Assembly: GCF_003945385.1 (NCBI RefSeq)
Contig: NZ_AP018920.1
Span: 6,138,001-6,202,000, forward strand
Reading direction: 5' to 3'
Length of the DNA: 64,000 nucleotides
DNA from: Pseudonocardia autotrophica
GTDB lineage: Bacteria > Actinomycetota > Actinomycetes > Mycobacteriales > Pseudonocardiaceae
Shown here: positions 46,612-63,726 of the stretch, in pieces
Position numbering within the stretch: position 1 is the stretch's first letter
Layout of the letters: each line of letters begins with the position of its first letter
Notes under the pieces: model-generated
Database searches by the model: none
Told to the model about the DNA's origin: nothing
The model's input: the letters and a program-made list of their open reading frames with translations, nothing else
Made by a program: the position numbers and the translations under genes

Positions 46612-47255
<644 letters not shown>

Positions 47256-47259
<4 letters not shown>

Positions 47260-48258: not shown

Positions 48259-48269
48259 GCCTGCTCCCC

Positions 48270-48581: not shown

Positions 48582-48692
48582 CCGCCCACCCCGTCCCGTT
48601 CCGGCCGGGCGGCTGCCCGACCGGCGCACCGTGCCAGGGGCGCCGGCCCGCCACTCCCCGTTCCCGGACCGGTGTTCGCGACCGGGAACGGA

Positions 48693-49880: not shown

Positions 49881-51445
49881 CCCGGTTCGGTCCAGGCGAG
49901 CTGCATCCGGCGGGCGCCGTGCCTGCGGTCGACCAGGACCGTCCGTCCCGGGGGTCCGGGCTGCGGCTTGACCTTCTCCAGCAGCGCGCCCTCGTCCGGG
50001 CTCCCCGACCCGACCAGGCCCGGTGCACCGAGCTCGCGCAGCCTGCCGAGCACCGGATCGAACAGTGCCCTGGCCGCGCCGCCGGTCCGCCGGGCCAGCA
50101 CCACGTGCAACCCGACGTCACGGGCCTGCGGCAGGTACTCGGCCAGCGGCAGCAGCGGATGCGGCGCCGACCCGCCGGAGGGGACGACGAGGTCGTAGTC
50201 GTCCACCAGCAGCCACAGCTCCGGCCCGCTCCACCAGGACCGGTCACGCAGCTGCTGCGGGGAGACACCGGGCCCCGGCAGCCGCCGCCCCAGCGAGTCC
50301 GCGATGTCCGCGCAGGCCTCCGCCGTGGCCTGCGCGGTCGAGGTGTGCGCGAGCAGATGGGAGGCGTCGATCCCGCCGAGCAGTGTCCGCCGGTGGTCGA
50401 TCGCGACGATCCGGGCCTGCTCGGGCGTCCACCGGCGGGCGATGTCACGGGCCAGCAACCGCAGCAGGTTCGTCTTGCCGCCGCCGGAGTCGGCGAAGCA
50501 GAGCAGGTGCGGCTCGTCCGGCGCGAGCTCGACGGTCGCGAGCCGGTCCTCGTCGACCCCGATGGCGGGCCCGCGCCCGTCCCCGGCGGGCAGCTCCTCG
50601 ACCGTGATCCGCTCAGGGAGCAGCCGGACCTCCGGCATCGACGGCCCGTCCCAGGCGGCCGCGATCGCGGGTGCGGGATCGGTGCCGGGCTCGGTCCACG
50701 GGGCGGCGAGCACCGCGGGGGCGCCGTCCGGGGCCAGCCCGTGCCCGGGCCGGACCGGCACGGTCGCGGCCCGGCGCCGGTCCACCTCGGACTCACCGGG
50801 ATCGCCCAGCCGCAGCTCGATCCGGCTGCCCAGCTGGTCCTTGAGTGCGGGCCGGAACTCGGCCCAGCGGGCGGCGGTGACCGCGATGTGCACGCCGTAG
50901 GCGAGGCCCCCGGAGGCGAGCGCGGTGAGCCGTTCGTCGAGGTCCTCGAAACCGGACCGCAGCGCGCTCCAGCCGTCGACGACCAGGAGCAGGTCGGTGC
51001 ACGGCTCGTCCGGCAGGTCCCCGGCGGCGCGCCGGGCCCGGAACTCCTCGATCCCGGTGATCCCGTGCGCGGCGAACAGCTGCTCGCGCCGGTCGACGGT
51101 CGCGACGACCTCGGCGACGACCCGCCGCACGAGATCGCTCCGGCGCCGGTCGGCGACCGTCCCGACGTGCGGCAGCCCGGCCAGCGGCCCGAGGCCACCC
51201 CCGCCCAGGTCGAGCAGATGCACGCCGAGCTCGTGGGGGGTGCGGGTGAGCGCGAGCGCCGTGACGATCGTGCGCAGCGTCGTCGACTTGCCCGAGCGGG
51301 GCCCGCCGACCACGGCGAGATGCCCGGCCGCACCGGACAGGTCTGGGACCAAGCTAGAGGGGACCTCATATACAGCGGTCCCGGCCGGTGCTACCAACAC
51401 CGGGCCCCGGGACCTTGAGCGGAAGTAGGTCCGCCCCGTGAGCAC
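49877..51445 (-). CDS. eccC: EccC, C-terminal part (ATPase domains 2 and 3), split by a mobile element
   Basis: 3' half of the ESX-4 secretion ATPase. Chromosome-derived sequence starts at DLSGAAGHLAVVGG. Domain 2 has P-loop GGPRSGKSTTLRTIV and Walker B LLLVVDGWSAL. Domain 3 has CFADSGGGKTNLL and WLLVDDYDLVV. About 35 N-terminal residues (from GTG 51445; GTG 51400 also possible) are encoded by the element's left end. The 5' half lies at 61110-63602. Joined across the element, the parts would give a normal EccC of about 1,300 residues. The fragment has its own possible start, so it could work like the natural EccCb of ESX-1. No promoter is evident. Confidence 0.88.
   Translation of the reverse strand: MLTGRTYFRSRSRGPVLVAPAGTAVYEVPSSLVPDLSGAAGHLAVVGGPRSGKSTTLRTIVTALALTRTPHELGVHLLDLGGGGLGPLAGLPHVGTVADRRRSDLVRRVVAEVVATVDRREQLFAAHGITGIEEFRARRAAGDLPDEPCTDLLLVVDGWSALRSGFEDLDERLTALASGGLAYGVHIAVTAARWAEFRPALKDQLGSRIELRLGDPGESEVDRRRAATVPVRPGHGLAPDGAPAVLAAPWTEPGTDPAPAIAAAWDGPSMPEVRLLPERITVEELPAGDGRGPAIGVDEDRLATVELAPDEPHLLCFADSGGGKTNLLRLLARDIARRWTPEQARIVAIDHRRTLLGGIDASHLLAHTSTAQATAEACADIADSLGRRLPGPGVSPQQLRDRSWWSGPELWLLVDDYDLVVPSGGSAPHPLLPLAEYLPQARDVGLHVVLARRTGGAARALFDPVLGRLRELGAPGLVGSGSPDEGALLEKVKPQPGPPGRTVLVDRRHGARRMQLAWTEPG
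51331..51364. other. attL (left chromosome-element junction)
   Basis: Chromosomal eccC sequence (caccggacag) up to about 51340 joins the element arm that ends TAGAGGGGAC at 51355-51364. AG at 51339-51340 is shared with attR and sits at the centre of the rebuilt 50-bp attP. Confidence 0.8.
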
Positions 51446-51785
51446 TGTATCGCCCGTCTTAGACGTCGCCCAGCGTCAGCGCGCCGCCCGCGCTCTGCGG
51501 ATCGAGCTGCGTCGCACGCTCCCCGACTACCTCGCCGACGTCGTCTGCGCTCTGCTGGTCGCCCTCGACGTGCTCGCTGACGCCTTCGCCGACGACGCGC
51601 GACCTCGCGACGACCTCGCAGCCGCTGATCGCTACCTCGCGGCCTCAGCCCTTGCCGCGGTCACGGCCTACGACGAGCGCCTCGTGACGTTCGTCGGGGA
51701 GCAACTTGAGGACCTCGCCGCTGCGTATCCGGACGAGCCGTCCCTGTCTCGACTCGCCGAGTCCCTCCTCGCGCAGCCGGAGTGA
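51438..51785 (+). CDS. Element-encoded helical protein, unknown
   Basis: Protein of 115 residues from GTG 51438 with GGAAGTAGG upstream. Three or four Ala/Leu-rich helices (IELRRTLPDYLADVVCALLVALDVL). No family recognised. First gene at the left end of the element; overlaps the start region of the split eccC on the other strand by 8 bp. Its stop overlaps the next small gene (GTGA). Confidence 0.6.
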   Translation: MSTVSPVLDVAQRQRAARALRIELRRTLPDYLADVVCALLVALDVLADAFADDARPRDDLAAADRYLAASALAAVTAYDERLVTFVGEQLEDLAAAYPDEPSLSRLAESLLAQPE

Positions 51786-51937
51786 CCTGCGCCGTTCTCC
51801 TCGTCGCCGTGGGCACGCTCTGCGTCCTGCTCGGCTTGGCCGTCGGCGCCCTCGCCGGTCACGCCGTCTCACGTCGTCGCTGCGCCGCCCGGCATCACCG
51901 GCACGACCGGCTCACCCTGCGCCGTCCCCGGCGCTGA
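51782..51937 (+). CDS. Very small single-helix membrane protein
   Basis: Protein of 51 residues starting GTG 51782 within the previous stop. Residues 4-27 form one hydrophobic helix (VLLVAVGTLCVLLGLAVGAL), followed by a basic His/Arg tail. Small hydrophobic spread-type proteins (Spd) beside the transfer gene are common in Streptomyces plasmids and integrative elements, so a role in spreading is possible. Confidence 0.55.
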   Translation: MTCAVLLVAVGTLCVLLGLAVGALAGHAVSRRRCAARHHRHDRLTLRRPRR

Positions 51938-52032
51938 TCCACCCCTGCCGCCACCTGCGGCCCTCACCTGTCCCGCACCGCTACCGGTCCGGGTCGTCAC
52001 CCATCGCCACCCGCACAGAACCGGAGATCACC

Positions 52033-52428
52033 ATGCGCCGAATCCCCGTCGACACTGCCCGCGTCGCATTCGTCGGCACGGGCAAGACCGCCGCCCGCGC
52101 CAAGTACGCCGAGCTGGCCGACGGCTCCCGTCGCCGCGTCCCGGACGCCCAGGACACCAACGACGAGGGCGTTCCGATGTGGACGGTCGACGTCTTGGTC
52201 GACGACGACGAGGCCGACCGCGCCGAGGTCGTCAGCGTCAAGGTCGCCTCGTACGACGAGCCGCGCACCGAGAAGTGGCAGCCCGTGGCGTTCCGCAACC
52301 TCGTCGCCTTCGGCTACGTCGCGCAGGGCAGCAATCGCGTCGCCTACAGCTTCACCGCCGACGCCATCGAGGGCCCGGTGAGCGGCCGCAAGGGCGCTCA
52401 GAACCACGGCGAGCAGAACGCCGCCTGA
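52033..52428 (+). CDS. Conserved AICE-type protein upstream of the transfer ATPase
   Basis: Protein of 131 residues. Start MRRIPVDTARVAFVGTGKT; beta-rich middle (PMWTVDVLVDDDEADRAEVV, VSVKVASYDE) and VAFRNLVAFGYVAQGSNR. Similar proteins often precede the FtsK-type gene of actinomycete integrative elements; the fold may be an OB-like nucleic-acid binder, but I cannot show this. GGAG lies 8 nt before ATG. Followed by a terminator. Confidence 0.6.
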   Translation: MRRIPVDTARVAFVGTGKTAARAKYAELADGSRRRVPDAQDTNDEGVPMWTVDVLVDDDEADRAEVVSVKVASYDEPRTEKWQPVAFRNLVAFGYVAQGSNRVAYSFTADAIEGPVSGRKGAQNHGEQNAA

Positions 52429-52450
52429 CCGACTCCTCGCCATCCCCTCG

Positions 52451-52484
52451 ACGGCCCCGTCCCGCATCCCCGGGGCGGGGCCGT
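52451..52484. terminator. Hairpin terminator in the element
   Basis: 14-bp stem with one G-T wobble: ACGGCCCCGTCCCG (52451-52464) with CGGGGCGGGGCCGT (52471-52484). It separates the 52033 gene from the transfer gene. Confidence 0.65.
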
Positions 52485-52506
52485 CCCCACGTCAGGAGAA
52501 CCCGTC

Positions 52507-53613
52507 ATGTTCGGTCGTCACCGCCACGACCGTGAGGGCGAGGCCCTCGTCGAGCAGCTCGTCACGATGTGGGTCCGGGCCTGCGAGGGCGCGAGCCTCG
52601 TCCGCGTCGTCGACACCGTCAGCGGGCCGACGATCATCCCGCCCAAGATCGTCGACATCACCCTCGGCCCGCCGACGATCCTCGTCGTCGAACTACAGCC
52701 CGGGATGCTGCCTGCGGACGTCGTCGACCTCGCCCCGCGCATCGCGCCGCACATGGACGCGTGGGGCCTGCACGTCGAGCCGATCGGCCATCGGCACGTC
52801 CGTGTCGCTCTGCTCGACAGCGACCCCCTCACTGGCACTGTCCCGCTGCTCGCCGGGGCCGGCCTGCACCTCGGCCGCGACGAGTCCGGCGCAGACCTGC
52901 GCATTGCCCCCGCGGACCTGCCGCACGCGGTCTGCCAGGGCGTCACCCGCTCCGGCAAGAGCGTCTGGACGTACTCGCTACTCGCCCAGCTCGCCCACCG
53001 CCCCGACGCGCTCATCGCCGGGTGCGACCCGACCGGCCTGCTGTGGCGTCCGCTCGCCGGGTCCCGGCACGCCGACCGGCTCGCCTCCGGGCTGGTCGAT
53101 CCCGGCGCCCACGAGAAGGTGCTCGCCGCCGTGGTCGCCGAGATGGACGACCGCATCCGGGACCTGCCCGCCGACCGCGACACAATCGCCGTCAGCCTCG
53201 GCCGGCCGCTGCTGTTCGTGATCTTGGAGGAGTATCCCGGCCTGCTGCGCGTCCTCGACGCGGCCAAGACCCGCGGCGACGACCCCGGGGCCCGCGTCCG
53301 TGCGCTGGTGTCCCGCCTGTTGGCCGAGGGCGCCAAGGCCGGCGTCCGCGTCGTCATCCTCGCCCAGCGCGCGGAGGCATCCGTGGTGGGTGCGTTCGAG
53401 AGGGCGATGTGTTCGCTGCGGATCTCGTTCCGGTGCGACAACAGGGCCTCGGTCGAGCTACTCCACCCCGGCGCCCCGCCCGCGCTTGCCGACGCGCACA
53501 CGGCCGCCCTGCCCGGCATCGCCCTCGTCAGCCGCCCCGGACACCCCGTGGCCCGCATCCGCGCCCCGTACATCGGCGGGTACCCGGAGTTCGCCGCGGC
53601 GGTCGCCGCATGA
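52507..53613 (+). CDS. FtsK/SpoIIIE-type DNA translocase (transfer protein)
   Basis: ATPase of 368 residues. Walker A GVTRSGKSVW near residue 145; Walker B LLFVILEEYPGLL near 237; IILAQRAEAS-type motif VVILAQRAEAS. Such proteins (TraSA of pSAM2, TraB) form a hexamer that moves double-stranded DNA between mycelial cells. ATG 52507 behind AGGAGA. No membrane helix is obvious, unlike some TraB proteins. It is the key argument that the element is conjugative. It belongs to the same superfamily as its target EccC. Confidence 0.88.
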   Translation: MFGRHRHDREGEALVEQLVTMWVRACEGASLVRVVDTVSGPTIIPPKIVDITLGPPTILVVELQPGMLPADVVDLAPRIAPHMDAWGLHVEPIGHRHVRVALLDSDPLTGTVPLLAGAGLHLGRDESGADLRIAPADLPHAVCQGVTRSGKSVWTYSLLAQLAHRPDALIAGCDPTGLLWRPLAGSRHADRLASGLVDPGAHEKVLAAVVAEMDDRIRDLPADRDTIAVSLGRPLLFVILEEYPGLLRVLDAAKTRGDDPGARVRALVSRLLAEGAKAGVRVVILAQRAEASVVGAFERAMCSLRISFRCDNRASVELLHPGAPPALADAHTAALPGIALVSRPGHPVARIRAPYIGGYPEFAAAVAA

Positions 53614-53843
53614 CCCGGCCCCTGCTGGTCCCCTCGTCGCAGCGCGTCGGCGGGCATCGCCCTGCACGGCCCCGGCGCGGGTCGCAACCCGCCGCCATCA
53701 CCGCCGGCCGACCGACCAGGCTTGCGGCCCGCGCCGGGGCCGTGCTGCCGTCAGGCGCCGTCGTGCTGTGGCGAGGGGACCAGCAGCCCACCCCCCTCGG
53801 AGCCGTGTGGAGGCCCGCCGGAGGCCGCGGTGGCACCCAGTGA
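53610..53843 (+). CDS. Small basic protein, unknown
   Basis: Protein of 77 residues, ATGA overlap with the transfer gene. Pro/Arg/Gly-rich (GVLPSGAVVLWRG-like strand near the end). No family recognised. The overlap argues that it is translated. Confidence 0.45.
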   Translation: MTRPLLVPSSQRVGGHRPARPRRGSQPAAITAGRPTRLAARAGAVLPSGAVVLWRGDQQPTPLGAVWRPAGGRGGTQ

Positions 53844-53982
53844 GCCGGGTCGCCGAGCATGCGCCGCGCCGCGCGCCGGCCGGAGGTCGAGCGCGCGGCG
53901 GCGCGAGCGCAGCGAGCGCGCCGGGGCGCCTGGGTACTACTGCGGTACTACTGCGGACAACTCTTCCGCCGCCGGTCAGGAC
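53844..53982. repeat. Region in front of the initiator gene with tandem 11-bp repeats
   Basis: GGTACTACTGC occurs twice in direct tandem at 53933-53943 and 53944-53954, behind a GC-only block of gcgc and gagcgc repeats at 53890-53930. Candidate replication or regulatory sequence for the adjacent rolling-circle initiator. The initiator frame is open through this stretch to 53722, so it may also be coding. Confidence 0.45.
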
Positions 53983-55083
53983 GTGGTGCCCGGTCGGGAG
54001 GAACGTCGTCGCACCCGCCGCCGTGAGGCTCTGACCGCCCGCGCCCGGCTGTGGCGGTGGACGAGCCTGCCGCGCCTGCGCAACTGCGGCCGGGTCACGA
54101 CCTCGACCGTGGGGGGTCCGGTCCTGCGGGTGTCGACCGATGGGGAGGGGAACCGTCGAGCGGGCGTCGCGGGACTGCAGTCCTGCGGTTCACCGTGGGC
54201 GTGCCCGGTGTGCGCGCGGAAGATCGCCGCGCAGCGCTCGGACGAACTGCGCGACGTGCTGGCCGCCGTCGCAGAGGCCGGTGGATCGGTGCACATGCTG
54301 ACCCTGACGATGCGCCACCACCGCGGCCAGACCCTCGGCGAGCTGTGGCGGGCGTTGTCCAAGGCGTGGCGCGCAGTCACGTCTGGACGGGCGGTCGAGC
54401 GGGAGCGGGAGCGGTTCGGCGTGCTCGGCATGGTCCGGGTGATCGAGGCGACGCACGGCGAGCACGGGTGGCACCTGCACGTGCACGCCCTGGTGGCGTT
54501 CGACGGCCCCGTGTCGCGGGAGCTGGCCGAGGTGCTCGGATCGGACATGTTCGGCCGGTGGGAACGAGCGTTGCTCCGCGCGGGACTCGCTGCGCCCCTT
54601 GAGGATCGAGGTGGGCTCGACGTCCGGCCGGTCGACCTCGGTGCCGGTTCGATCGACGCCGTCGCCGAGTACCTCTCGAAGATCACGATCGAGATCACCG
54701 GCGGCACGTTGAAGGAGGGCCGTCGCGGGAACCGGCCGCCGTTCGCCCTGCTCGCCGACGCCCTGGCCGACGGCAATGCCGACGACTGCGAGCGCTGGCT
54801 CGAATGGGAGCAGGCGTCCCGCGGACGACGTCAGGTCGCCTGGTCACAGGGCTTCCGGGAGTGGGCCGGCATGCGCCGCGAGCAGACCGACGAGGAGATC
54901 GCCGCCGAGGACCAGGGCGGCACGGACACCATCGCCGTCGAGCCGGAGGACTGGCCGGAGCTGCGCCCGCAGCTCGCCGAGTGGCTGGACGTCGCGGAGC
55001 GTGACGGCGTCGAGGCTGCTTCCGCGTGGCTCACCGTCCGCCGGATCGGGTGGGCGCGGGTCGATCGACCGCCGCGGCGATAG
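53983..55083 (+). CDS. HUH rolling-circle replication initiator (RepSA-like)
   Basis: Initiator of about 366 residues. A Cys-rich finger (CGSPWACPVCARK) is followed by LTLTMRHHRGQ, the HUH metal site HGWHLHVHALVAF (residues about 163-167) and a candidate nicking Tyr in AVAEYLSKITIE (Y230). This matches the RepSA/pIJ101 Rep type found in Streptomyces plasmids. Start GTG 53983 or 53986 behind TCAGG; the frame is open to 53722, so the N-terminus is uncertain. It should nick the element after excision and allow replication. Confidence 0.85.
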   Translation: MVPGREERRRTRRREALTARARLWRWTSLPRLRNCGRVTTSTVGGPVLRVSTDGEGNRRAGVAGLQSCGSPWACPVCARKIAAQRSDELRDVLAAVAEAGGSVHMLTLTMRHHRGQTLGELWRALSKAWRAVTSGRAVERERERFGVLGMVRVIEATHGEHGWHLHVHALVAFDGPVSRELAEVLGSDMFGRWERALLRAGLAAPLEDRGGLDVRPVDLGAGSIDAVAEYLSKITIEITGGTLKEGRRGNRPPFALLADALADGNADDCERWLEWEQASRGRRQVAWSQGFREWAGMRREQTDEEIAAEDQGGTDTIAVEPEDWPELRPQLAEWLDVAERDGVEAASAWLTVRRIGWARVDRPPRR

Positions 55084-55146
55084 CGTCCAGTGTGGACGTA
55101 TTGGGCGCCTCGCTCGTTCTGTAGCACGGCCCAGCCATGCTACTTT

Positions 55147-55161
55147 TCGCAGGTCAGAGCG
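55147..55161. promoter_or_regulatory. Repeated 15-bp motif, copy 1
   Basis: TCGCAGGTCAGAGCG, about 58 bp upstream of the excisionase-like gene. An exact inverted copy is at 59557-59571 and a 13/15 copy at 59614-59628. Candidate binding site for an element-encoded regulator. Confidence 0.65.
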
Positions 55162-55218
55162 ACGCGCCGTAGGCCTGAGGTCGGGACAGAACACCGATCC
55201 GGGACGTACGTTTCTTCC

Positions 55219-55461
55219 GTGACCAACACCGCGCCGCAGACCGTCCCGCTTAGCGTGCAACTGGTGGCAAAGACCGAGTTCGATCTCACTACGGGTGATC
55301 TCGCTCGACACTTCGGTGTCGCTCCGCTGACCATCGCCCGTTGGGCCGATGCTGGCTTGATCCCGTGCCAGCGACTCCCGGCCCGCGGACACCGCCGGTT
55401 CCGGCCCGCCGACGTAGAGGCCCTCGCGCGCTCGATGGCTGAGGGCCCGGTGGCAGCGTGA
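55219..55461 (+). CDS. Excisionase-like HTH protein
   Basis: Protein of 80 residues. A MerR/excisionase-type winged helix: LTTGDLARHFGVAPLTIARW, then the wing ADAGLIPC and RGHRRFRPADVEAL. Serine integrases usually need a recombination directionality factor for excision, and this gene is the best candidate in the element, although such factors vary in sequence. Start GTG 55219; no ribosome binding site, leaderless possible. Overlaps the next gene by 4 bp. Confidence 0.75.
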   Translation: MTNTAPQTVPLSVQLVAKTEFDLTTGDLARHFGVAPLTIARWADAGLIPCQRLPARGHRRFRPADVEALARSMAEGPVAA

Positions 55462-55646
55462 CCGACGCCCGCCCGGAGCCGCAGAGTATCGACGACTACA
55501 TCCGTGAGTTGGTCGACACGTTCCCACCGCTCACCGAGGTGCAACGGAGCGCGATCGCAGCGCTACTGCGCCCGGAGGCGTCCCCCGCGCCCCGGACGGC
55601 CCGCGCCCCGGGCGAGATCCCGGCGCCGCGGCGCTCGGCCGCGTAG
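55458..55646 (+). CDS. Small element protein, unknown
   Basis: Protein of 62 residues starting at GTG inside the previous stop. Conserved-looking core IDDYIRELVDTFPPLTEVQ followed by SAIAALLR, then a Pro/Ala tail. Similar short proteins accompany excisionases in actinobacterial elements. Followed by a terminator. Confidence 0.6.
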   Translation: MTDARPEPQSIDDYIRELVDTFPPLTEVQRSAIAALLRPEASPAPRTARAPGEIPAPRRSAA

Positions 55647-55660
55647 ACCCCCCGAAACGC

Positions 55661-55694
55661 GCGAACGGCCGGGCGTCCACTCCCGGCCGTTCGC
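55661..55694. terminator. Hairpin terminator in the element
   Basis: Perfect 13-bp stem (55661-55673 with 55682-55694), 8-nt loop, after the excisionase operon. Confidence 0.75.
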
Positions 55695-55748
55695 AAGGTC
55701 CCGCGGACTCGCCATCCGCACGCCCATCACACACCCCCAGGATAGCCG

Positions 55749-56066
55749 ATGCCAGCTCCCCGAACGACTCCCCGACACGACGTCACCCCTGCCGTCGTCA
55801 ACGGCGAGCGTGCCCTCGTCGTCGCCCCTGAGATCGCCGAGCACTACCCGCCGGCCGTCCGCGAGGGCCTCGCCCGGCGCCGCCTCGTCCAGGCCGGCGG
55901 CCGGTGCCCCTGCGGCGCGCGGATGGTGCTGCCGAACCGGGCCGAGCGTCGGAAGGCCGCCCGCACCGGCGAGATGCTGCGCGCTACCGCCGCACACGAC
56001 GACGAAAGGGCGTCCACGGCCGTGGACACCCCTGGTGGGCGCCAGGCGATGGCGGGTCACCGGTGA
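55749..56066 (+). CDS. Element protein with CxC motif, unknown
   Basis: Protein of 105 residues. Middle part LVVAPEIAEHYPPAVREGLARRRL, then a GRCPCGARMVLPNRAERRK segment, a possible half zinc knuckle. No family recognised. First gene of a six-gene operon running to 59369; overlaps the next by 4 bp. Confidence 0.55.
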   Translation: MPAPRTTPRHDVTPAVVNGERALVVAPEIAEHYPPAVREGLARRRLVQAGGRCPCGARMVLPNRAERRKAARTGEMLRATAAHDDERASTAVDTPGGRQAMAGHR

Positions 56067-57484
56067 CGGCGCTCGATGCCGGGTGGGTGGTTCGGTACGT
56101 CGCCGAGGTTCGCCCTGATCTCAAGGCCACTGCGCGACTGGTGTTCGCGGCGATGACGACACCGGTCGGCACCGGCGACGACCCGACGTGCTTCCTGTCC
56201 CAGGACACCATCGCGGCGCGGGTCGGGTGCAGCCCGCGAGCGGTCCGAGACGCGCTCGCCCAGCTCGAGCGCAGCGGCGCGATCGTCCGGGACGGCTGGT
56301 CGGGACCACGGTTGCACCGGGTCGTCCGGTGGCGCCTCCCGCTGCTCGTCCCGATCCGGGATCTCGGCCGCCGGCACGGTGACGCGTTGTCGGCGAAATC
56401 TGCCGACAAGGGGCTCCCGGCAGATTCTGCCGACAAGCACCCGGCAGATTCTGCCGACAAGCACCCGGCAGATTCTGCCGAGAATCCTCTCGACTCCTCC
56501 CGACCCCTAGGGAGGGGGAGAGGAGAGAGATCGGACGCCGCTACCGCGGCCGCCTCCGCTGGGGCTACGGCGACCGCTGCGGCGCCCTCGACCGGCGATG
56601 CACTCGTCACCGAGGTCGTCGAGCGGTTGGGCAAGAGCCCGGCCGCTGCCGAGCAGTGGATCGCCCGCAAGCTCGCCGGGGGCGGGGTCAAGAACGAGCC
56701 GGCGTGGATCCGGAAGTGCATCGCGAACGAGCTTGAGCAGCAGGCCGCTCCGGCGAAGGCGTCCACCGCTCGGCCCGCGGCGAAGAATCGCACGGCCCCG
56801 GCGAAGTCGAGCACGGGCGCGGCCCCGGCGAAGAAGCGACTCAAGGGCGGAGTGCCAAGCGCTGCCGACCGGGCTGCCATCGTCGCGGCGTCGCGCGCCG
56901 GCGAGTCGTCCACACAGATCGGGGCTCGATTCAACCGCTCGGCGAGGCAGGTTGAAACGGTCCGCGGCGAGGTCGATAGGCAGGAAGCCGTGGCGGCCCT
57001 CGGCCGAGGTGAAGCGCACGACGAGATCGCCTCCGCCCTGGCGATGGACATCGCCCAGGTCACCAAGATCGCCGACGACCTGAACCTGCGCGCAGTCCAG
57101 GGCGCCGCCGTCACGCGGCTGACTCGCGGCGACGCCTGGGCCGACGTCATCGCCGAGGCATCGGAGCGCCTCGGCGACTCGGTGTCTGACGCGATGCAGA
57201 CCCGATGGCGCGGGTGGGCCGACCGCGAGCGTCGCCGGAAGGGCCTCGGCCCGGTGCTCGTGCCCGCCCCGACGGTCCCTGAGCCGCCCGCTGCCCCGAC
57301 CGGCCCCGCGACCACCCCGGAGCCCGGTTCGACCGCCCACGAGGCCGTGAGGGTTCGGAAACAGCCGCTTTCGCCGGAGTCGCGCCGGCTGTGGGGCCTC
57401 GACCCCGAGCCGCCGGCCGAGACGCGCCCGGCGCCCGCCCGGTTCCGGTGGGAGGACATCCCCCCGTCGCGAGCTGCGTCGTGA
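56063..57484 (+). CDS. Helix-turn-helix protein, possible second replication/partition protein
   Basis: Protein of 473 residues. The N-terminal winged helix (DDPTCFLSQDTIAARVGCSP, RAVRDALAQLERSGAIV) resembles plasmid and phage initiators. A tandem 8-residue repeat (PADSADKH) follows at about residues 117-140. The middle has Ala/Lys-rich low complexity. A second helical region (AADRAAIVAASRAGESSTQI to AMDIAQVTKIADDLNL) resembles repeated HTH domains. The repeats at the DNA level form iteron-like palindromes. GTG start in the previous stop. Function is inferred, not proven. Confidence 0.6.
   Translation: MTALDAGWVVRYVAEVRPDLKATARLVFAAMTTPVGTGDDPTCFLSQDTIAARVGCSPRAVRDALAQLERSGAIVRDGWSGPRLHRVVRWRLPLLVPIRDLGRRHGDALSAKSADKGLPADSADKHPADSADKHPADSAENPLDSSRPLGRGRGERSDAATAAASAGATATAAAPSTGDALVTEVVERLGKSPAAAEQWIARKLAGGGVKNEPAWIRKCIANELEQQAAPAKASTARPAAKNRTAPAKSSTGAAPAKKRLKGGVPSAADRAAIVAASRAGESSTQIGARFNRSARQVETVRGEVDRQEAVAALGRGEAHDEIASALAMDIAQVTKIADDLNLRAVQGAAVTRLTRGDAWADVIAEASERLGDSVSDAMQTRWRGWADRERRRKGLGPVLVPAPTVPEPPAAPTGPATTPEPGSTAHEAVRVRKQPLSPESRRLWGLDPEPPAETRPAPARFRWEDIPPSRAAS
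56391..56480. repeat. Iteron-like repeats inside the HTH gene
   Basis: Perfect 15-bp palindrome CGGCAGATTCTGCCG at 56418, 56442 and 56466, spaced exactly 24 bp. A diverged copy CGGCGAAATCTGCCG is at 56391. The AT-containing centres stand out in this GC-rich gene. A longer imperfect dyad (ctcctcccgacccctaggga) follows at about 56490-56535. Confidence 0.75.
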
Positions 57485-57579
57485 TCGCACAGCCCTCGCC
57501 GCATCGCCGATGCGCAGGAACCCCGCGCGCGCGACCCGCGCGGACCACCACCCGCCCAACCCCCCGAACGGAGCACTCC

Positions 57580-57846
57580 ATGGTCAACCCCGCTGCAGCC
57601 CGCGTCGCCGCCCGCGCGGCGTTCGTCCGGGCCACCACCGAGGCCAGTCCGGTCCGGCGCCGGCCCACCCCGGTTCGCGAGCGGCGAGACAGCATCCCGC
57701 CCGGCTTGGCCGCCTTCGCCGGCCCGCCGGCCCCGCCACGGTGCGAGGCCCCGCGCCGGTGGTGCCCGGCTGGCGCAGAGGTCTGCCCGTGCGCCCGTCG
57801 CCGAGGCGTCCCCGCCCCGGCCGAGGACCAGGCGGTGGCTGCGTGA
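57580..57846 (+). CDS. Small Cys-containing element protein, unknown
   Basis: Protein of 88 residues. Helical N-terminus (MVNPAAARVAARAAFVRAT) and a C-terminal CEAPRRWCPAGAEVCPCARR cluster with five Cys, possibly zinc-binding. ATG 57580 has GGAG upstream. An in-frame GTG at 57481 that overlaps the preceding stop is an alternative start. 4-bp overlap with the next gene. Confidence 0.5.
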   Translation: MVNPAAARVAARAAFVRATTEASPVRRRPTPVRERRDSIPPGLAAFAGPPAPPRCEAPRRWCPAGAEVCPCARRRGVPAPAEDQAVAA

Positions 57847-58244
57847 CCGCCCCGGACGGCGACGCCGTGCTGCCGGGCGCCCCGGACAGCCCTCGCGCGC
57901 GTGCGTACGTGCGCCCCGGCGCGCGCGGGACCAAGCTCGCCCATGTCCCCGCCGCCGAGCTGGCCGACCACGACGCCGACAGGACCGAGCTGCAGACGGC
58001 ATACAACGGTCTCAGGACCGCGCTGGCGCGTCTCCGGCGAGCGAGGGACCCGAAGGCCCGGGCCACGGCCCGCGCGCTCACAGCGGCGACGGTGGAGACG
58101 CTCGGCGCCCTCACCGAGCGTGCCCGCGAGGCCGACCCGCGCCCTCCGCGGAAGGTTCGACTCCGTCAGGAGGGCAACGCCCTCATCGAAAAGGCCAACG
58201 CTGCACGTGCCCGGCGCGGGATGGGGCCGCTCGATGCCGACTGA
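57843..58244 (+). CDS. Helical element protein, unknown
   Basis: Protein of 133 residues starting GTG in the previous stop. One long charged helix (HDADRTELQTAYNGLRTALA, RLRRARDPKARATARALTAA) suggests a coiled coil. No family recognised. Overlaps the next gene by 11 bp. Confidence 0.5.
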   Translation: MTAPDGDAVLPGAPDSPRARAYVRPGARGTKLAHVPAAELADHDADRTELQTAYNGLRTALARLRRARDPKARATARALTAATVETLGALTERAREADPRPPRKVRLRQEGNALIEKANAARARRGMGPLDAD

Positions 58245-58497
58245 GGACCGCCGGGAGCGACGCACCGGCGACCGCGACGTCGCCCGGGCACACGGACTGC
58301 TGCAGCGCCGATTTCGGCGCCTGCGCGACTGCTGGGACGAGGACGTCGAGCAGGACACCAACCGCCTCGCCGACGAGGCCGTCGCCGCCCTTGAACGGCT
58401 CGGCGCCAGGGCCGCGCTGATCGAGCAGCGCGCTTACCGCCAGACCACCGGTGCGACCCGGGCGCCGGCCATCCCCACCACCAAGGAGATCCCATGA
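58234..58497 (+). CDS. Small charged element protein, unknown
   Basis: Protein of 87 residues. Arg/Asp/Glu-rich helix (LLQRRFRRLRDCWDEDVEQD). The start overlaps the previous gene by 11 bp and the stop overlaps the next by 4 bp. No family recognised. Confidence 0.5.
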   Translation: MPTEDRRERRTGDRDVARAHGLLQRRFRRLRDCWDEDVEQDTNRLADEAVAALERLGARAALIEQRAYRQTTGATRAPAIPTTKEIP

Positions 58498-59369
58498 CCA
58501 AGCACAACCCCCGCGTCCTCGACGCCCTCGACCGCCTCGGCGTCGAGCGTGAGCGCGCCGCCGACCAGCGCCGCCGCACCACCGACCGTCAGACCCTCGA
58601 CGGCGTGCCCGCCCGCCTCGCCGAGGCCCGCGAGACCTACCTCGCCGCCCTCCGCAAGGCGTACGACGTCGCCGCGGACGTCGAGGAGGTCGGCGCCGAG
58701 GCCGTCCGCCGTGCGTTCACCACCGCCGAGGGGGGCGCCCGTCAGGCTCTCGATGCTGCCCGCGCCGACGTCGAGCGGATCGTGACCGCCGAGCGCGAGC
58801 AGCAGGCCGCCGCGACCGACCGGCGCGGCACCGACGAGCGTCTCCTCGCCGAGCTGCAGGAATCGCGCGCCTGGTCGCGGGTGACCGCCCAGCTCGACGG
58901 CGGCCGCACCCTCGATGAGGTGCTCGCCGACGCCCGCGAGGCCGGCGACGCCGCCACCCTGCGCGCGATTCGGGCCGAGCTGCCCGCCCACGCCCGGGCG
59001 GTCCTCGGCACGAGCGACGGGGTGAGCGCCGGCGTCCCGGACCCGCGCTACCTCGGCGAGACCCTCGGCCAGGTCGACGACGCGCTCGTCGCTGTCCTGC
59101 CGGCTGCCGAGGCCAAGCCGATCCGCGACCGCCAGGCCCTCGACGCCGCCGAGGCCGCCGCCACCCGCGCGACGGAGTCGTTCAGCCGGGACCTCGGCCG
59201 ATTCCGGGTCGAGCCGTCGCAGGCCGCCGCGGGCGCCGACGCCCCGACGGTGCTGCGCCGCGAGTGGAGCACCACCGAGATCGGAGGCAAGGCCCGGGTG
59301 CGCTCGTTCGGCGAGGATGGCGCGCTCGTCGACTCCGCGGCCGAGGCCGGCCCCGACACGGCCGCCTGA
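58494..59369 (+). CDS. Coiled-coil protein, unknown cargo of the element
   Basis: Protein of 291 residues, almost wholly alpha-helical with Ala/Glu/Arg heptads from residue 10 to about 240 (LAEARETYLAALRKAYDVAA, AREQ-type stretches). A distinct beta-rich C-terminal motif (VLRREWSTTEIGGKARVRSF) closes it. This shape recalls phage scaffold or structural-maintenance-type helical proteins, but no head or terminase genes are present. Last gene of the operon; a strong terminator follows. Confidence 0.5.
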   Translation: MTKHNPRVLDALDRLGVERERAADQRRRTTDRQTLDGVPARLAEARETYLAALRKAYDVAADVEEVGAEAVRRAFTTAEGGARQALDAARADVERIVTAEREQQAAATDRRGTDERLLAELQESRAWSRVTAQLDGGRTLDEVLADAREAGDAATLRAIRAELPAHARAVLGTSDGVSAGVPDPRYLGETLGQVDDALVAVLPAAEAKPIRDRQALDAAEAAATRATESFSRDLGRFRVEPSQAAAGADAPTVLRREWSTTEIGGKARVRSFGEDGALVDSAAEAGPDTAA

Positions 59370-59380
59370 CCGATCCCACC

Positions 59381-59416
59381 GGGGCCCGCCCGCGACACGC
59401 TCCGCGGGCGGGCCCC
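59381..59416. terminator. Hairpin terminator at the end of the cargo operon
   Basis: Perfect 14-bp stem GGGGCCCGCCCGCG (59381-59394) with 59403-59416, 8-nt loop, followed by cttccttc. Confidence 0.8.
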
Positions 59417-59680
59417 CTTCCTTCATCCCTGGCGAGGAACCCGCATCATGGCGGACACCCCCGACAACTCCCGGCGCGAGACCGTATCTCCTATTCACTG
59501 CTCAAGCGTCACGGAGCGTGAGATTCGGGCGATAATCGATCTTGAATAGTGCATAACGCTCTGACCTGCGAGAACGCGCGGAGCGGAAGCCTATAATCGA
59601 TGTTATGTAAGATCCGCAGGTCAGAACGGCGTCATCGACGCATGACTATGCAAGTGCGTGAATGACCGGGCGGTCGCCGC
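59417..59680. other. AT-rich non-coding island with inverted 15-bp motifs
   Basis: Between the convergent cargo operon and integrase gene. Much lower GC than anywhere else in the window at about 59475-59620. CGCTCTGACCTGCGA (59557-59571) and CCGCAGGTCAGAACG (59614-59628) are inverted copies of the 15-bp motif of 55147. ATAATCGAT occurs at about 59532 and 59593. Candidate transfer locus (clt), origin or regulatory RNA region. No gene seen. Confidence 0.55.
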
Positions 59681-61102
59681 CTACACCCGCGGTTCGATCT
59701 TGACGCCGCGCGGGTCGAAGTAGCCATCCTCGCTGTCGGCCGTCCACCCCCGCGGCCGGCCCTTCGGCGCGGGCAGGACCACCACCCGGAGCAGGTGGCG
59801 AACGATGGCCTTCCGGCGCGAGACCGGAGCCGCGGTCCATGCAGCCTGGACGTCGTCGGCGTCGGCCACCCCTGCGAGCGGAGAGACGCCCTCCGCGGCC
59901 GCAACGGCAAGGTCCAGCCGATCACCCTCGGCGCGTAGCTTCCGTGTCGCCTCGGCGAGCTGGGGGCCCGTGATCGCGCCGTCGGCGAACAGGGCGGCCA
60001 GCTCGCCGAGGCGCCCCTCGACGTCCGCCCGCTCGGCGAGCAGTTCGCCGAGATCAAGGCGAGCTGACTCGGGCGCGACCAGGACGCGAGCGTCCGGCCG
60101 CGACAACCGCCCGAGGACGACCTTGCTCACGAACCTGTCGAGTGAGGCGATGCGCCGCCCGAGGTGCCACCCGTTGCGACACACGTACGTCGGTCGCCGC
60201 TCGCCATCCCGAGCCTTCCCGCTCGCAGCCCGCATCGTCGTGCCGTCGTCGCAGACCCCGCACTCGAAGATCCCGGTGCCGAGGTAGAGCTCGTTCTTCG
60301 TCCACGGGGGACGACGCCCCTCCGCCGTGACGACCCGGACCGCGTTGCGCCACTGCGCCGGCTCGACGATGGCTCGCCACTCGGCGGAACCGACGACCTC
60401 GCCGTTGTGCTCGACGAGCCCTGCGTTGCGCGCCCGCATCACCAGCTTGCGGACTGCGCGGGCGTCCCACCGCCTGCCGGTAGAGGTGGTCACGCCCTCG
60501 GAGTTGAGTTCTCGCGCCAGCGAGTTGAGGGTCTCCCCTGCCGCCACGCGCACGGTCAGGTCGGCGATGATGCGCGCTTCCTTCGGTCGGACGGTCAGCC
60601 CATCCGGCTCGAACCCGAACGGACGTTGCCCGCCGCGGTACCGGCCCGCCGAGGCAGCCTGCGCCTTCGCTGACTTCTGCCGTTCGATCATGTGCTCGAC
60701 CTCGTATCGGGCGACCGCGCCGAGTTGCCGGGCGACCATCCTCCCCGACGGCGTCGCAAGGTCGAGAGGGCCGGCCTTCACCGTGTGAACCTCGACGCCG
60801 TGCGGATCACATGCCGCGATCCATTCCTCCAACTCGGCCGGTGACCGGTGCAGCCGGTCGGTGTGCCAGCACAGCACGACGTCGACTCGACCGGCGCGCA
60901 CATCGTCGAGCAGCGCGAGATAGCCCGGCCTGGCCTTGCCGCTGTAGGCGCTCAGATCGTTGTCGGTGTGGACCGCGGCGATGCTGACACCGACGGACTC
61001 GGCGAGTTCCCGGCAGTCCTGTTCCTGCCGTTCGACCCCTAGACCTGCGCCAACACGGTCGCGAGAGATGCGGACGTATACGGCTGCACGGCGGGAGGTC
61101 AC
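59681..61102 (-). CDS. Large serine recombinase (integrase)
   Basis: Serine integrase of 473 residues. The catalytic domain starts AAVYVRISRD with nucleophile S13, followed by ERQEQDCRELAE and HTDRLHRSPAELEEW. A recombinase domain follows, beginning YRGGQRPFGFEPDG. The zinc ribbon has CGVCDDGTTM and YVCRNGWHLGRR. A coiled-coil motif (LGELLAERADVEGRLGELAA) is typical of directionality control. Integrase at the element's very end next to attR, start GTG 61102, is the usual arrangement. It should recognise the attP and eccC attB described here. Confidence 0.92.
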   Translation of the reverse strand: MTSRRAAVYVRISRDRVGAGLGVERQEQDCRELAESVGVSIAAVHTDNDLSAYSGKARPGYLALLDDVRAGRVDVVLCWHTDRLHRSPAELEEWIAACDPHGVEVHTVKAGPLDLATPSGRMVARQLGAVARYEVEHMIERQKSAKAQAASAGRYRGGQRPFGFEPDGLTVRPKEARIIADLTVRVAAGETLNSLARELNSEGVTTSTGRRWDARAVRKLVMRARNAGLVEHNGEVVGSAEWRAIVEPAQWRNAVRVVTAEGRRPPWTKNELYLGTGIFECGVCDDGTTMRAASGKARDGERRPTYVCRNGWHLGRRIASLDRFVSKVVLGRLSRPDARVLVAPESARLDLGELLAERADVEGRLGELAALFADGAITGPQLAEATRKLRAEGDRLDLAVAAAEGVSPLAGVADADDVQAAWTAAPVSRRKAIVRHLLRVVVLPAPKGRPRGWTADSEDGYFDPRGVKIEPRV

Positions 61103-61108
61103 ACCACG

Positions 61109-61114
61109 ATTATG
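61109..61114 (-). promoter_or_regulatory. Likely -10 box of the integrase gene
   Basis: CATAAT on the minus strand, 6 nt before GTG 61102, so the transcript is probably leaderless. It overlaps the TAA stop of the EccC N-terminal part (61110-61112). No clear -35. Confidence 0.5.
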
Positions 61115-63602
61115 TCCCCTCTACTTGACACCGTGCTAGATCGAGCGTGAGCAGGTCCCGGCTCTGCAGGTAGGGCCGGTCGACGAGGCCGACCGGTACC
61201 GGTGCCCGGCCCGCCGGGACGGGCGCCTGCAGCCCGCGCCCCGGCCGGACGACCGGTTCGCCGAGCACCGCGGTCAGCGGCGGCGGCTCCTCCAGCGGTG
61301 GCAACCACACCCGGTGTGCCCGCGGGCCGGGGCCGCTCACCGCGGCGACCACCCGGTCGAGCACGCTCGGTGCCCCGGCCCCGCGCCCGCGCCCGGCAGG
61401 TTCGGCAGGTTCGGCCGGCCCGGCAGGTCCGGCCGGGTCCGGCAGCACCACCGGCGCCACCGCGAACGGCAACGCGCGGCGTGGCCCGCAGGGCCCCCGG
61501 TAGCGCCCCGGCGGATCGTCCTGCGGGCCGGACACGTAGGCGGCCCGGAAGCGGACCAGCTCGTCGGTGCCCGCGGACAGATACGCCGAGCCGGGGGTCG
61601 GCGGGAGCAGGTGCGCGTCGGGCACACCGAGCACGGCGCGGGACTCGGCGGCGGAGAACGTCCGCAGCGCGATCCGGTAGGACAGGTGCGATTCCAGGCC
61701 GCGCAGCCGCCCCTCCTCCAGCCGCTGCGAGGCGAGCAGCAGGTGGATCCCGAGCGACCGGCCGAGCCTGCCGATCGTGACCATCAGGTCGATCATCTCG
61801 GGGCGCTGGGCGAGCAGCTCGGAGAACTCGTCGACCACCACCAGCAGCGACGGCAGCGGATCCAACGCCGCCCCGCCGCGCCGGGCCGCGTCGTGCTCGG
61901 CCAGCGAGGAGAGGTTCCCGGCGGCCCGCAGCAGCTCCTGGCGGCGGGTGATCTCACCGGCGAGCGCGTCGGCCATCCGGTCGACCAGCGTCAGCTCCTC
62001 GGCCAGGTTCGTGATCACCGCCGAGACGTGCGGCAGCCCGGCCAGCCCGAGGAACGTCGCGCCGCCCTTGAAGTCGACCAGCACCAGGTTCAGCTCGTCC
62101 GCGCCGGTGGTCGCGGCCAGGCCGAGCACCAGCGTCCGCAGCAGCTCGGATTTGCCGGAGCCGGTCGCGCCGATGCAGAGCCCGTGCGGCCCGGCGCCGC
62201 CCTGCGCCGACTCCTTCAGGTCGAGCAGCACCGGCCTGCCGGCGGCGTCGGTGCCCAGCGGCACCCGCAGCCGTTCGGTGGGGCCGCGGCGTCCGCGCAG
62301 CGCCGCGATCGCGCCCGGCTCCACCGGTCCGAGTCCGAGCAGCGGCCCCAGCCCGGGAGCCCGGACGTCCACCGGTCCACCCGGGCCGCCGGGATCGGCC
62401 GGGCCGTCCGGCCGGTAGCGCGCGAGCCGCCGGGCGAGCGCGCGGGCCTCCGCCCCGGTGACCGCGTCCGGGACCCCGACGAGTGACCCGCCGGGGCCGC
62501 CACGGCGCAGCGTGCGGACGCCGGTGGGCTCGGCGCCGACGGCGAGCCGCAGCACCGACACCGCGGGACGCCGTCCGCGGGCCGGGCCGATCCGCAGCAC
62601 GGTGACCCCGGGTACCCCGGCCCATGCGCCGGGGGTGTCGGCGGCGCCGTCGAGCACCACCAGCAGGTGCCGGTCGCCCGACGACGGCTCGTCCACCCAC
62701 CAGCGCCGGACCCGGTCCGGATCGTCGGTGACCATCCGGAGCGGGCCGATCGCGTCGGACCGGCTCGGATGCCCGGTGTGCGGCAACCACTTCACCCAGT
62801 CCCAGCGCCCGGCGGCCGCCCCCGGTGCGACGACGGCCAGCCGCGCGTCGTCCGGCCCGTGCCACAGCACGTACTGGACGACGAGGGCGCGGGCCAGATC
62901 GAGTGCCGCGTCGAGCCCGGCATCGGGGGCCGTATCGAGTGTCGCGCCGGGGTCGGGTTCGACCCAGATCGTCGCCGATGCCCTGGCATCCACCGCGACT
63001 GGCAGATCGTCCACCGTGGAGTGTCGCCGCAGGAAGCGGCGCAGCGCGAGCGCCGAGAGCGGTTCCAGGCTCTCCAGCGGACCGGTGTGCGGTGCGCTGA
63101 GCCGGGCGGCGAGCCGCTGGGTGCCGCGGCCCACCCGCAGCCGGCAGAAGTCGTCGTCGGCGGGGCGGCGCTCCCAGAGCCGGCCCGCGGCCAGCACGTC
63201 CGGCCAGGCACCCGGATCGGGGTGCACGGTCTCCAGCGCACGGCGCTGCTGCGCCGCGGTCTCCCGGGCCCGGCCGCCGAGCACCTCGAGATAACGCAGG
63301 TAGTCACGGCGGTCCTCGTCCATCGTCGCGGTGCGCGCCCCGGCGCCGCGCCCGCCGCCGGTGAGCAGCATTCCGAGTGCCGAGAGCGCGAACATCCCGC
63401 CGAACAGCCACGTCCCGGCCTCGCCCCGGCCGAGCACCACGAACAGCACCGCGCCACCGACCATCATCAGCGGCAGCAGCCGCTGGGCGAGCCCGCCGGG
63501 GACCGGCCGCTCCGGCTCCGGCGGCGGCTCCGGCACCAGCTCCCCGCCGGGCATCTCCGGCACCGACCGGCGTGGTCGCCGCAACCCGATCGTCCCGCCC
63601 AC
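61110..63602 (-). CDS. eccC: EccC, N-terminal part (ATPase domain 1), split by a mobile element
   Basis: 5' half of the ESX-4 ATPase, 830 residues. Membrane helices at about 40-80 (LLPLMMVGGAVLFVVLGRG; LFGGMFALSALGMLL). Domain 1 P-loop CIGATGSGKSELLRTLV near residue 480 and Walker B LLVVVDEFSELL. The last eight residues ARCQVEGT and the TAA are encoded by attR; the chromosomal frame would continue LLTLDL-SGAAG into the part at 49877-51445. GTG 63602 has AGAGGAGG upstream. The cut lies close to the EccCa/EccCb boundary of ESX-1. Confidence 0.92.
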   Translation of the reverse strand: MGGTIGLRRPRRSVPEMPGGELVPEPPPEPERPVPGGLAQRLLPLMMVGGAVLFVVLGRGEAGTWLFGGMFALSALGMLLTGGGRGAGARTATMDEDRRDYLRYLEVLGGRARETAAQQRRALETVHPDPGAWPDVLAAGRLWERRPADDDFCRLRVGRGTQRLAARLSAPHTGPLESLEPLSALALRRFLRRHSTVDDLPVAVDARASATIWVEPDPGATLDTAPDAGLDAALDLARALVVQYVLWHGPDDARLAVVAPGAAAGRWDWVKWLPHTGHPSRSDAIGPLRMVTDDPDRVRRWWVDEPSSGDRHLLVVLDGAADTPGAWAGVPGVTVLRIGPARGRRPAVSVLRLAVGAEPTGVRTLRRGGPGGSLVGVPDAVTGAEARALARRLARYRPDGPADPGGPGGPVDVRAPGLGPLLGLGPVEPGAIAALRGRRGPTERLRVPLGTDAAGRPVLLDLKESAQGGAGPHGLCIGATGSGKSELLRTLVLGLAATTGADELNLVLVDFKGGATFLGLAGLPHVSAVITNLAEELTLVDRMADALAGEITRRQELLRAAGNLSSLAEHDAARRGGAALDPLPSLLVVVDEFSELLAQRPEMIDLMVTIGRLGRSLGIHLLLASQRLEEGRLRGLESHLSYRIALRTFSAAESRAVLGVPDAHLLPPTPGSAYLSAGTDELVRFRAAYVSGPQDDPPGRYRGPCGPRRALPFAVAPVVLPDPAGPAGPAEPAEPAGRGRGAGAPSVLDRVVAAVSGPGPRAHRVWLPPLEEPPPLTAVLGEPVVRPGRGLQAPVPAGRAPVPVGLVDRPYLQSRDLLTLDLARCQVEGT
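61114..61150. other. attR (right element-chromosome junction)
   Basis: Element arm GTCCCCTCTA at 61114-61123 runs to the shared AG at 61138-61139, after which eccC sequence (tcgagcgtgagcag) resumes. The rebuilt attP is 50 bp with perfect 10-bp terminal arms and AG at its exact centre. Confidence 0.8.
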
Positions 63603-63726
63603 CGCAGACCTCCTCTGTGGACACGAGTTGTCCCGAACGCCCACGGCCGGGGCCGGGACCGGCGAATACTCGCAGCGCTCGGCCCGCTGCACGGCCGTTT
63701 CCGACAACTCCCCCGGGAGCCTGACC

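What the first reader, a model, noticed from the sequence alone, without database searches (positions are those of the whole stretch)
51340..61139. Serine-integrase integrative element inserted in the ESX-4 eccC gene
A 9.8-kb element with FtsK-type transferase, HUH initiator, excisionase-like protein and large serine recombinase interrupts eccC. Classical actinomycete integrative elements use tyrosine integrases and tRNA genes. A type VII secretion gene as attachment site, with a serine integrase, is unusual and I know of no described example.
Basis: partly seen in the sequence, partly recalled or inferred. Interest (0 to 1): 0.9.

Follow-up and report, generated by a model that had tools for sequence, protein, structure and literature searches.

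The report
Mobile element splits secretion gene eccC
A self-integrating mobile DNA element has inserted itself into the motor gene (eccC) of a bacterial secretion system, and related elements have reached the same gene several separate times, suggesting that this gene, like known DNA-uptake genes, is a favoured landing site.

Summary
A 9,799-bp element (51341-61139) sits in the only eccC detected in the host, between ATPase domains 1 and 2, beside rplM/rpsI (ESX-4-type locus). The crossover dinucleotide is CT (minus strand), placed by an attP inverted repeat symmetric about it. eccC runs unbroken across this point in the 27 same-genus loci printed. The genus is Pseudonocardia.

The element is of AICE type: large serine integrase, HUH Rep_1 initiator, small FtsK-like translocase. 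Serine-integrase AICEs are known (19 of 144 in Ghinet 2011), so the class is not new. What I did not find in print is eccC as a target.

eccC is hit repeatedly. Six other distinct integrases in an 87-integrase survey sit in eccC domain 1, five of them at its Walker A, plus one found separately. eccC needs 7 state changes on the integrase tree. Other common targets are comM (16), cpaF-like (11) and comEC (4), which are DNA-uptake or recombination genes. The window's own site (domain 2) is a singleton; its two nearest integrases sit in comM and in an AraC-type gene. The host's comM carries GT where 11 of 12 comM-sited relatives use CT, which may explain the unusual site (suggestive only).

The parts
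61110..63926 (-). EccC N-terminal part (EccCa, ATPase domain 1); host-coded to about residue 931, last residues and stop supplied by the element
   Evidence: TIGR03924 E 2.7e-224; alignment to uninterrupted eccC
61138..61139 (-). attL crossover core CT (AG on plus strand), in the Leu codon of Leu-Asp-Leu
   Evidence: sequence; coordinates; symmetry
61114..61123 (-). attP inverted-repeat arm TAGAGGGGAC, 14 nt from core
   Evidence: coordinates counted
59681..61102 (-). large serine integrase, 473 aa (Resolvase + Recombinase domains)
   Evidence: Pfam; phrog_95 integrase E 1.1e-85
58494..59369 (+). ORF, 291 aa, no family match
57510..58244 (+). ORF, 244 aa, no family match (coding status uncertain)
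55904..57484 (+). HTH protein resembling replication initiation O-like proteins (start uncertain)
   Evidence: Pfam HTH_36/HTH_23; phrog_270 E 6.6e-9
55749..56066 (+). small ORF, 105 aa, no match
55090..55461 (+). MerR/BldC-type HTH protein, possible excisionase or regulator (start uncertain)
   Evidence: Pfam MerR_1 E 3.2e-9; BldC subfamily below cut-off; phrog_66 E 4.2e-6
53722..55083 (+). HUH rolling-circle replication initiator (Rep_1)
   Evidence: PF01446 E 2.2e-12; HUH-like His motif read from the translation
52507..53613 (+). small FtsK/SpoIIIE-like translocase (Tra), 368 aa, with Walker A GVTRSGKS
   Evidence: phrog_1358 E 1e-12; Walker A read
52033..52428 (+). conserved small element protein, 131 aa, resembling the SCO3933 family of regulatory proteins (below that model's cut-off)
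   Evidence: NF051478 E 3.4e-11, 43 bits against a cut-off of 80; 81% to L031, 61% to the G203 and G212 elements, 71% to the G311 element
51438..51785 (+). ORF, 115 aa, no match
51355..51364 (-). attP inverted-repeat arm GTCCCCTCTA, 14 nt from core
   Evidence: coordinates counted
51339..51340 (-). attR crossover core CT (AG on plus strand)
49877..51373 (-). EccC C-terminal part (EccCb, domains 2-3); host-coded from Ser-Gly-Ala-Ala-Gly-His; the frame continues into the element to a GTG at 51445
   Evidence: TIGR03925 E 1.1e-174
46612..48629 (-). rpsI, rplM and two small WXG100-like genes near eccC (ESX-4-type neighbourhood); gene names from reading the translations
   Evidence: translations; rplM/rpsI-like and WXG-like matches beside eccC in L212, L213, L214, L216 and L232, L233, L235

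Best explanation
This is an AICE-type integrative element of Pseudonocardia that entered the chromosome by large-serine-integrase recombination. attP (element ends, inverted-repeat arms around core CT) recombined with an attB in eccC (core CT in the Leu codon of Leu-Asp-Leu, just before ATPase domain 2), giving attL and attR. Shown here: the anatomy, the junctions, the empty sites in relatives, and the recurrence of eccC as a target of related integrases. Inferred: that the integrase did it; that Rep and the FtsK-like protein replicate and transfer the excised circle; that EccC is non-functional while the element sits there; that excision would restore it. eccC belongs to a small set of genes (comM, cpaF-like, comEC, eccC) that this integrase clade has repeatedly adopted. 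The most economical reason is that these genes are conserved, widespread and dispensable; a selective benefit from disabling DNA-exchange functions is possible but not shown.
For: Domains. Junctions and attP symmetry. Empty sites: 27 of 29 fetched same-genus eccC loci were printed unbroken across the junction; in the other two (L088, L089) both halves lie in one open frame. The host shows one EccCa match at E<=1e-60 (25 of 52 first-look candidates were scored). Recurrence: 7 of 87 distinct integrases in eccC, including the window, plus an eighth, in L231, found through eccC. eccC as a state needs 7 changes on the integrase tree. The G203 and G311 elements in eccC domain 1 carry the same Rep/Tra/p131 backbone, and both eccC halves were found for G203, G221 and G638 and G311.
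Against: The exact site (domain 2) was seen occupied only in this genome; no integrase over 64% identity was found in 297 family genomes (five candidates scored per genome), and in viral contigs 68% holds only over the first 168 residues. Excision, transfer and loss of secretion are untested. No Pfam zinc-ribbon domain, common in large serine integrases, was matched. The Tra protein matches no Pfam FtsK model.
Confidence: 0.87

Rival explanations
1. Displacement from comM: the integrase descends from comM-targeting integrases with core CT; this host's comM has GT at the core, so the element used a second site in eccC that offers CT in a similar Asp-Leu context.
For: Of 12 comM-sited integrases read from their integrase-side junctions, 11 show TTCGA(C/T)-CT, and the window joins at CTCGAT-CT. 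The window and the 64% relative share TGTCAAGT 7 nt from the core. Host comM reads TTCGAC-GT. Window, L111 (comM) and L031 form one clade, SH-aLRT 99. Integration at pseudo-attB where the canonical attB is missing is documented for PhiBT1 in Nocardia (PMC5937489, abstract read).
Against: L031's host comM has CT, yet its element sits in an AraC-type gene. One comM-sited integrase (L155) shows TT, so the core can follow the host. Of 30 fetched genus comM loci (host included; 57 genomes matched) 25 have CT, 4 GT and 1 TT, so a non-CT host is about a 1-in-6 event by chance. The tree does not settle the ancestral target. For 9 of the 12 comM cases only one junction was read. Shared attB sequence is only about 8 bp.
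Confidence: 0.25
2. Selected disabling of DNA exchange: elements of this clade gain by inactivating host DNA-uptake/recombination genes, because incoming homologous DNA could delete them; ESX-4 belongs to that set.
For: 39 of 87 integrases sit in comM, cpaF-like, comEC, ssd or eccC, with several label changes each for comM (6), cpaF-like (6) and eccC (7), and one for comEC. Croucher 2016 (PMC4774983, passages) proposes this for competence genes; Durrant 2022 (PMC10083194, passages) reports target enrichment for DNA competence genes; ESX-4 is tied to mycobacterial conjugation (PMC9514802, passages).
Against: Conserved P-loop codons alone could explain many sites (five of six eccC domain-1 cases and most cpaF-like cases lie at Walker A). 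comEC and the comM site are not P-loops. 44 of 87 carry no named target, and nif3, an AraC-type gene and a Y-family polymerase gene are also hit. No matched control set of equally conserved genes was run. No function of ESX-4 in Pseudonocardia is known to me.
Confidence: 0.25
3. EccC stays functional as two chains: the element supplies a stop for EccCa and an in-frame GTG start for EccCb, mimicking systems with separate EccCa and EccCb.
For: The EccCb frame is open back to GTG 51445 inside the element; neither half carries a stop or frameshift.
Against: The cut lies about 70 profile positions inside the EccCb model (match starts at 67 of 564), so the start of domain 2 stays on the EccCa piece; it is not the natural junction.
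Confidence: 0.1
4. Reversible switch: excision under some condition turns ESX-4 on, like comK or sigK elements (recalled parallels).
For: Precise insertion, no decay of either half, intact integrase frame.
Against: Not at this site in the 29 other same-genus eccC loci fetched, so not a fixed developmental element; no recombination directionality factor identified.
Confidence: 0.07

Closest known systems
AICEs (actinomycete integrative and conjugative elements), serine-recombinase minority (Ghinet 2011, PMC3218068; passages read)
   Same: Integrase + Rep (Rep_1 is in their profile list) + FtsK-like translocase; some serine AICEs sit in protein genes
   Different: eccC as target was not mentioned in the passages read ('type VII' occurs 0 times in the main text); transfer not tested here
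Large serine recombinases targeting the magnesium chelatase/comM gene (Durrant 2022, PMC10083194; passages read)
   Same: The nearest relatives of this integrase include comM-sited ones; they report 12.4% of predicted site-specific integrases in that gene and enrichment for competence genes
   Different: This one and others of the clade sit in eccC; 'type VII', 'FtsK' and 'secretion' occur 0 times in their main text (supplements not read)
Competence-gene insertions as intragenomic conflict (Croucher 2016, PMC4774983; passages read)
   Same: Mobile elements repeatedly disrupt genes for DNA uptake, including comM
   Different: 'type VII' and 'Actinobacteria' occur 0 times in the main text
PhiBT1 integrase at pseudo-attB sites in Nocardia (PMC5937489; abstract and outline read)
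   Same: Serine integrase using alternative sites where the canonical attB is absent
   Different: A vector experiment; here it is an inference from one natural insertion

Membership tests
AICE | integrase with att sites | tested here: met
AICE | replication initiator protein | tested here: met
   Rep_1 PF01446, E 2.2e-12
AICE | FtsK/TraB-like double-strand DNA translocase | tested here: inconclusive
   phrog FtsK/SpoIIIE-like E 1e-12; not matched by Pfam or NCBIfam at 1e-3
AICE | excision, replication as circle, conjugative transfer | not testable with these tools
   needs PCR and matings
Large serine integrase | N-terminal resolvase catalytic domain and recombinase domain | tested here: met
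   PF00239 and PF07508
Large serine integrase | zinc-ribbon/coiled-coil C-terminal part | tested here: inconclusive
   no Pfam zinc-ribbon hit; phrog_95 integrase matched over residues 2-447
Large serine integrase | two-base core shared by attL and attR, unlike flanks, symmetric attP | tested here: met
   core CT; 17/30 symmetry, 4 of 20,000 shuffles
ESX-4-type secretion locus | eccC with WXG100 genes next to rplM/rpsI | tested here: met
   same neighbourhood; the link of this synteny to ESX-4 is recalled
comM-targeting integrase clade | insertion in comM at the Phe-Asp-Leu codons | tested here: not met
   host comM is uninterrupted with GT at the core

The most novel reading that the evidence does not exclude
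eccC of ESX-4-type systems is a convergent landing gene for serine-integrase elements in Actinobacteria, on a par with comM, comEC and the Tad pilus ATPase, because ESX-4 takes part in DNA exchange and its loss protects resident elements from removal; where the usual comM site has lost its core dinucleotide, an element of the same lineage moved to eccC.
Probability: 0.2. Interest if true: 0.82.

Novelty: new variant of a known kind. Interest (0 to 1): 0.6.

Why it matters
It adds a type VII secretion motor gene to the short list of genes that integrating elements hit again and again, and the others high on that list here serve DNA uptake or recombination. That makes a testable link between ESX-4 and DNA exchange outside mycobacteria. 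It also gives a natural set of closely related integrases with three different targets (eccC, comM, AraC-type gene), useful for learning how serine integrases change site.

Tried and rejected
Tyrosine-integrase/tRNA element: rejected, no tRNA in the window and a resolvase-type integrase. GA as the shared core: rejected, attP symmetry falls on CT (17/30; next best centre 14/30 at offset -8). Natural EccCa/EccCb boundary as the site: not met. An apparent eccC interruption in L234 (G315) showed no integrase match and joins a mutase-like gene on a short contig; treated as a rearrangement or assembly join and not counted. L232, L233 and L235 showed eccC without an integrase match. Near-identical DNA of the element in plasmid records: none. 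Phage records: 1,031 with a match, each under 60% identity, the best listed about 38%. Viral contigs gave 14 relatives; with the same probes two adjoin or neighbour ComM-like sequence (L217, L223), none adjoins EccC or CpaF, and most hold too little upstream DNA to judge. One search used a wrong index for its attP/attB printout; corrected, and only its core coordinates are used. The NCBIfam scan of p131 was one base out of frame; repeated in frame. My third note counts genus comM cores as 26 of 30; one search corrects this to 25 of 30. The cpaF label includes rows with 35-48% identity to the host CpaF (L161, L165, L168, L169, L170, L175), so 'cpaF-like'. In the 87-row set, rows under 33% identity to both queries or under 300 aa were dropped, among them the cpaF-like L200 and the comM-adjacent L194. 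No structure was predicted.

Full report
WHAT IS THERE. On the minus strand, an eccC gene is cut in two: EccCa at 61110-63926 and EccCb at 49877-51373. Between them lie 9,799 bp (51341-61139, one core copy included) carrying a large serine integrase directly inside one end, a MerR/BldC-type small protein, a Rep_1 HUH initiator, a small FtsK-like translocase, a small protein resembling the SCO3933 family of regulators (below cut-off) and several unmatched ORFs. Neither eccC half has a stop or frameshift. The window belongs to Pseudonocardia: L031 is titled Pseudonocardia sp. OFTM178, and its comM place and E-value are identical to those of G300, listed as the same genus as the window. The host shows a single EccCa match at E<=1e-60, 25 of 52 first-look candidates having been scored.

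JUNCTIONS. In gene orientation, attL reads ...CTCGAT-CT-AGCACGG... and attR ...CCCAGAC-CT-GTCCGG.... The shared bases in register are GA and CT. Building attP from the two element ends, arm symmetry peaks at CT (17 of 30 positions; the best other centre 14; 4 of 20,000 shuffles reach 17), with a 10-bp exact inverted repeat 14 nt from the core on each side. The core is therefore CT, at 61138-61139 and 51339-51340. No coding base of eccC is lost or gained apart from the core, judged against relatives. Unbroken eccC across the same codons was printed for 27 of 29 fetched same-genus loci; L088 and L089 were not printed, but their halves lie in one frame. At the core position of those 27, my reading gives CT in 21, GT in 5 and AT in 1.

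RELATIVES AND THEIR SITES. The integrase was searched in 297 family genomes (41 with a match at E<=1e-40, own included), 394 class genomes (6 at E<=1e-80, own included) and the genome collection (27 loci); the integrase of the G203 eccC element was searched in 397 order genomes (25 at E<=1e-80, own included). I asked which gene abuts the integrase start, using ComM, EccC and CpaF as probes, then ComEC, Nif3 and Ssd after reading the flanks. Of 87 distinct integrases kept (at least 33% identity to either query and 300 aa), the counts are comM 16 (13 at the Phe-Asp-Leu codons, 3 elsewhere), cpaF-like 11, eccC 7 (window included), comEC 4, nif3 3, ssd 1, AraC-type 1 and no named target 44. One of the 44, L006, sits in a Y-family polymerase gene. 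The survey is by integrase similarity, not by target, so the targets were not preselected; but probing only named genes means the rest may hide other shared targets, and most sites were judged from the integrase side only.

eccC AS A REPEATED TARGET. Five of the seven eccC cases sit at or beside the Walker A codons of ATPase domain 1 (L060, L187, L012, L159, L196; about residues 650-653 of the L080 EccC query), one lies about 25 codons further on (L188), and the window lies before domain 2. They occur in both orientations. The five need 5 changes on the tree, at least 4 forced by starred branches; eccC in any position needs 7 (quick tree, SH-aLRT support only). Domain-1 labels were not more clustered than shuffled labels, as expected if acquired separately. 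An eighth case, G311, was found from its broken eccC and carries an integrase 67% identical to L060's. Four of the surveyed domain-1 loci (G080, G042, G178, G203) are near rplM/rpsI; for G154 none was seen within the roughly 10 kb held downstream, and for G638 (2.9 kb held) and G311 (under 0.1 kb held) too little flank was held. In the genus sample of 60 genomes, 55 have an EccC match, and elements of this family interrupt it in at least three: the window, G203 and G311; not all 55 were inspected beyond their hit coordinates.

ONE ELEMENT FAMILY, SEVERAL SITES. The window, G203 (eccC domain 1), L031 (AraC-type gene), G212 (Y-family polymerase gene) and G311 (eccC domain 1) share Rep, FtsK-like and p131 proteins (to the window: Rep 37-75%, FtsK-like 41-54%, p131 61-81%) and have integrases 44-63% identical to the window's. 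Window and L031 also share terminal DNA (CGGTGTTGGTAGCACCGGCCGGGACCGC) up to near the att arm. So a common backbone is found at four different sites.

THE comM QUESTION. Of 12 comM-sited integrases joined at the Phe-Asp-Leu codons, 11 show CT at the core place and one (L155) TT; the right-hand junction was read for three of them. The window joins at Leu-Asp-Leu with CT; the 64% relative has the same TGTCAAGT 7 nt from the core. The host's own comM is whole but reads Phe-Asp-Val, with GT at the core. Since serine integrases need matching core bases (established knowledge), this comM should not accept a CT attP. Against reading too much into it: 5 of 30 fetched genus comM loci lack CT anyway, L031's host comM has CT although its element sits elsewhere, and L155 shows that the core can change. 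I rate displacement at 0.25.

MECHANISM. Shown: anatomy, junction, empty sites, recurrence. Inferred from the families: integration by the serine integrase; maintenance and transfer by Rep and the FtsK-like protein after excision; loss of EccC function while integrated, because domain 2 is cut near its start and about 70 profile positions of the EccCb model stay on the other piece.

AGAINST WHAT IS KNOWN. Serine-integrase AICEs are known (PMC3218068, passages). comM as a very common serine-integrase target, and enrichment of targets for competence genes, are known (PMC10083194, passages; supplements not read). The conflict idea for such insertions is known (PMC4774983, passages). A role of ESX-4 in mycobacterial conjugation is reviewed in PMC9514802 (passages). 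eccC or type VII secretion as an attachment gene did not appear in the listings of searches (listed titles and abstract starts only; the library holds open-licence papers only). I therefore call it a new variant of a known kind, with the repeated use of eccC as the part worth a second look.

Noticed in passing
L108 (G203), L110 (G221): G203 carries both an eccC domain-1 element of this family and, on another contig, a separate integrase element of about 26 kb in comM; G221 shows the same two insertions.
   Followed up: partly
L162, L174, L166, L073: Four related serine integrases sit in comEC, one change on the tree; insertion was read in both orientations.
   Followed up: partly
L064, L178, L008, L017, L016 and others: Serine integrases inserted at or near the Walker A codons of cpaF/tadA-like genes in either orientation.
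   Followed up: partly
L007, L044, L018: A group of related integrases beside or in NIF3-family genes.
   Followed up: no
L234 (G315:C333): eccC domain 1 is fused downstream of a mutase-like gene on an 8.6-kb contig; probably a rearrangement or assembly join.
   Followed up: partly
window 56386-56484: A 24-nt repeat in four close copies (75-100% alike; spacings 27, 24, 24) inside the replication-initiator-like HTH gene of the element.
   Followed up: no
L066 (G154:C58): Two serine integrase copies alike over the compared stretch lie in opposite orientation on one short contig, about 4 kb between them.
   Followed up: no
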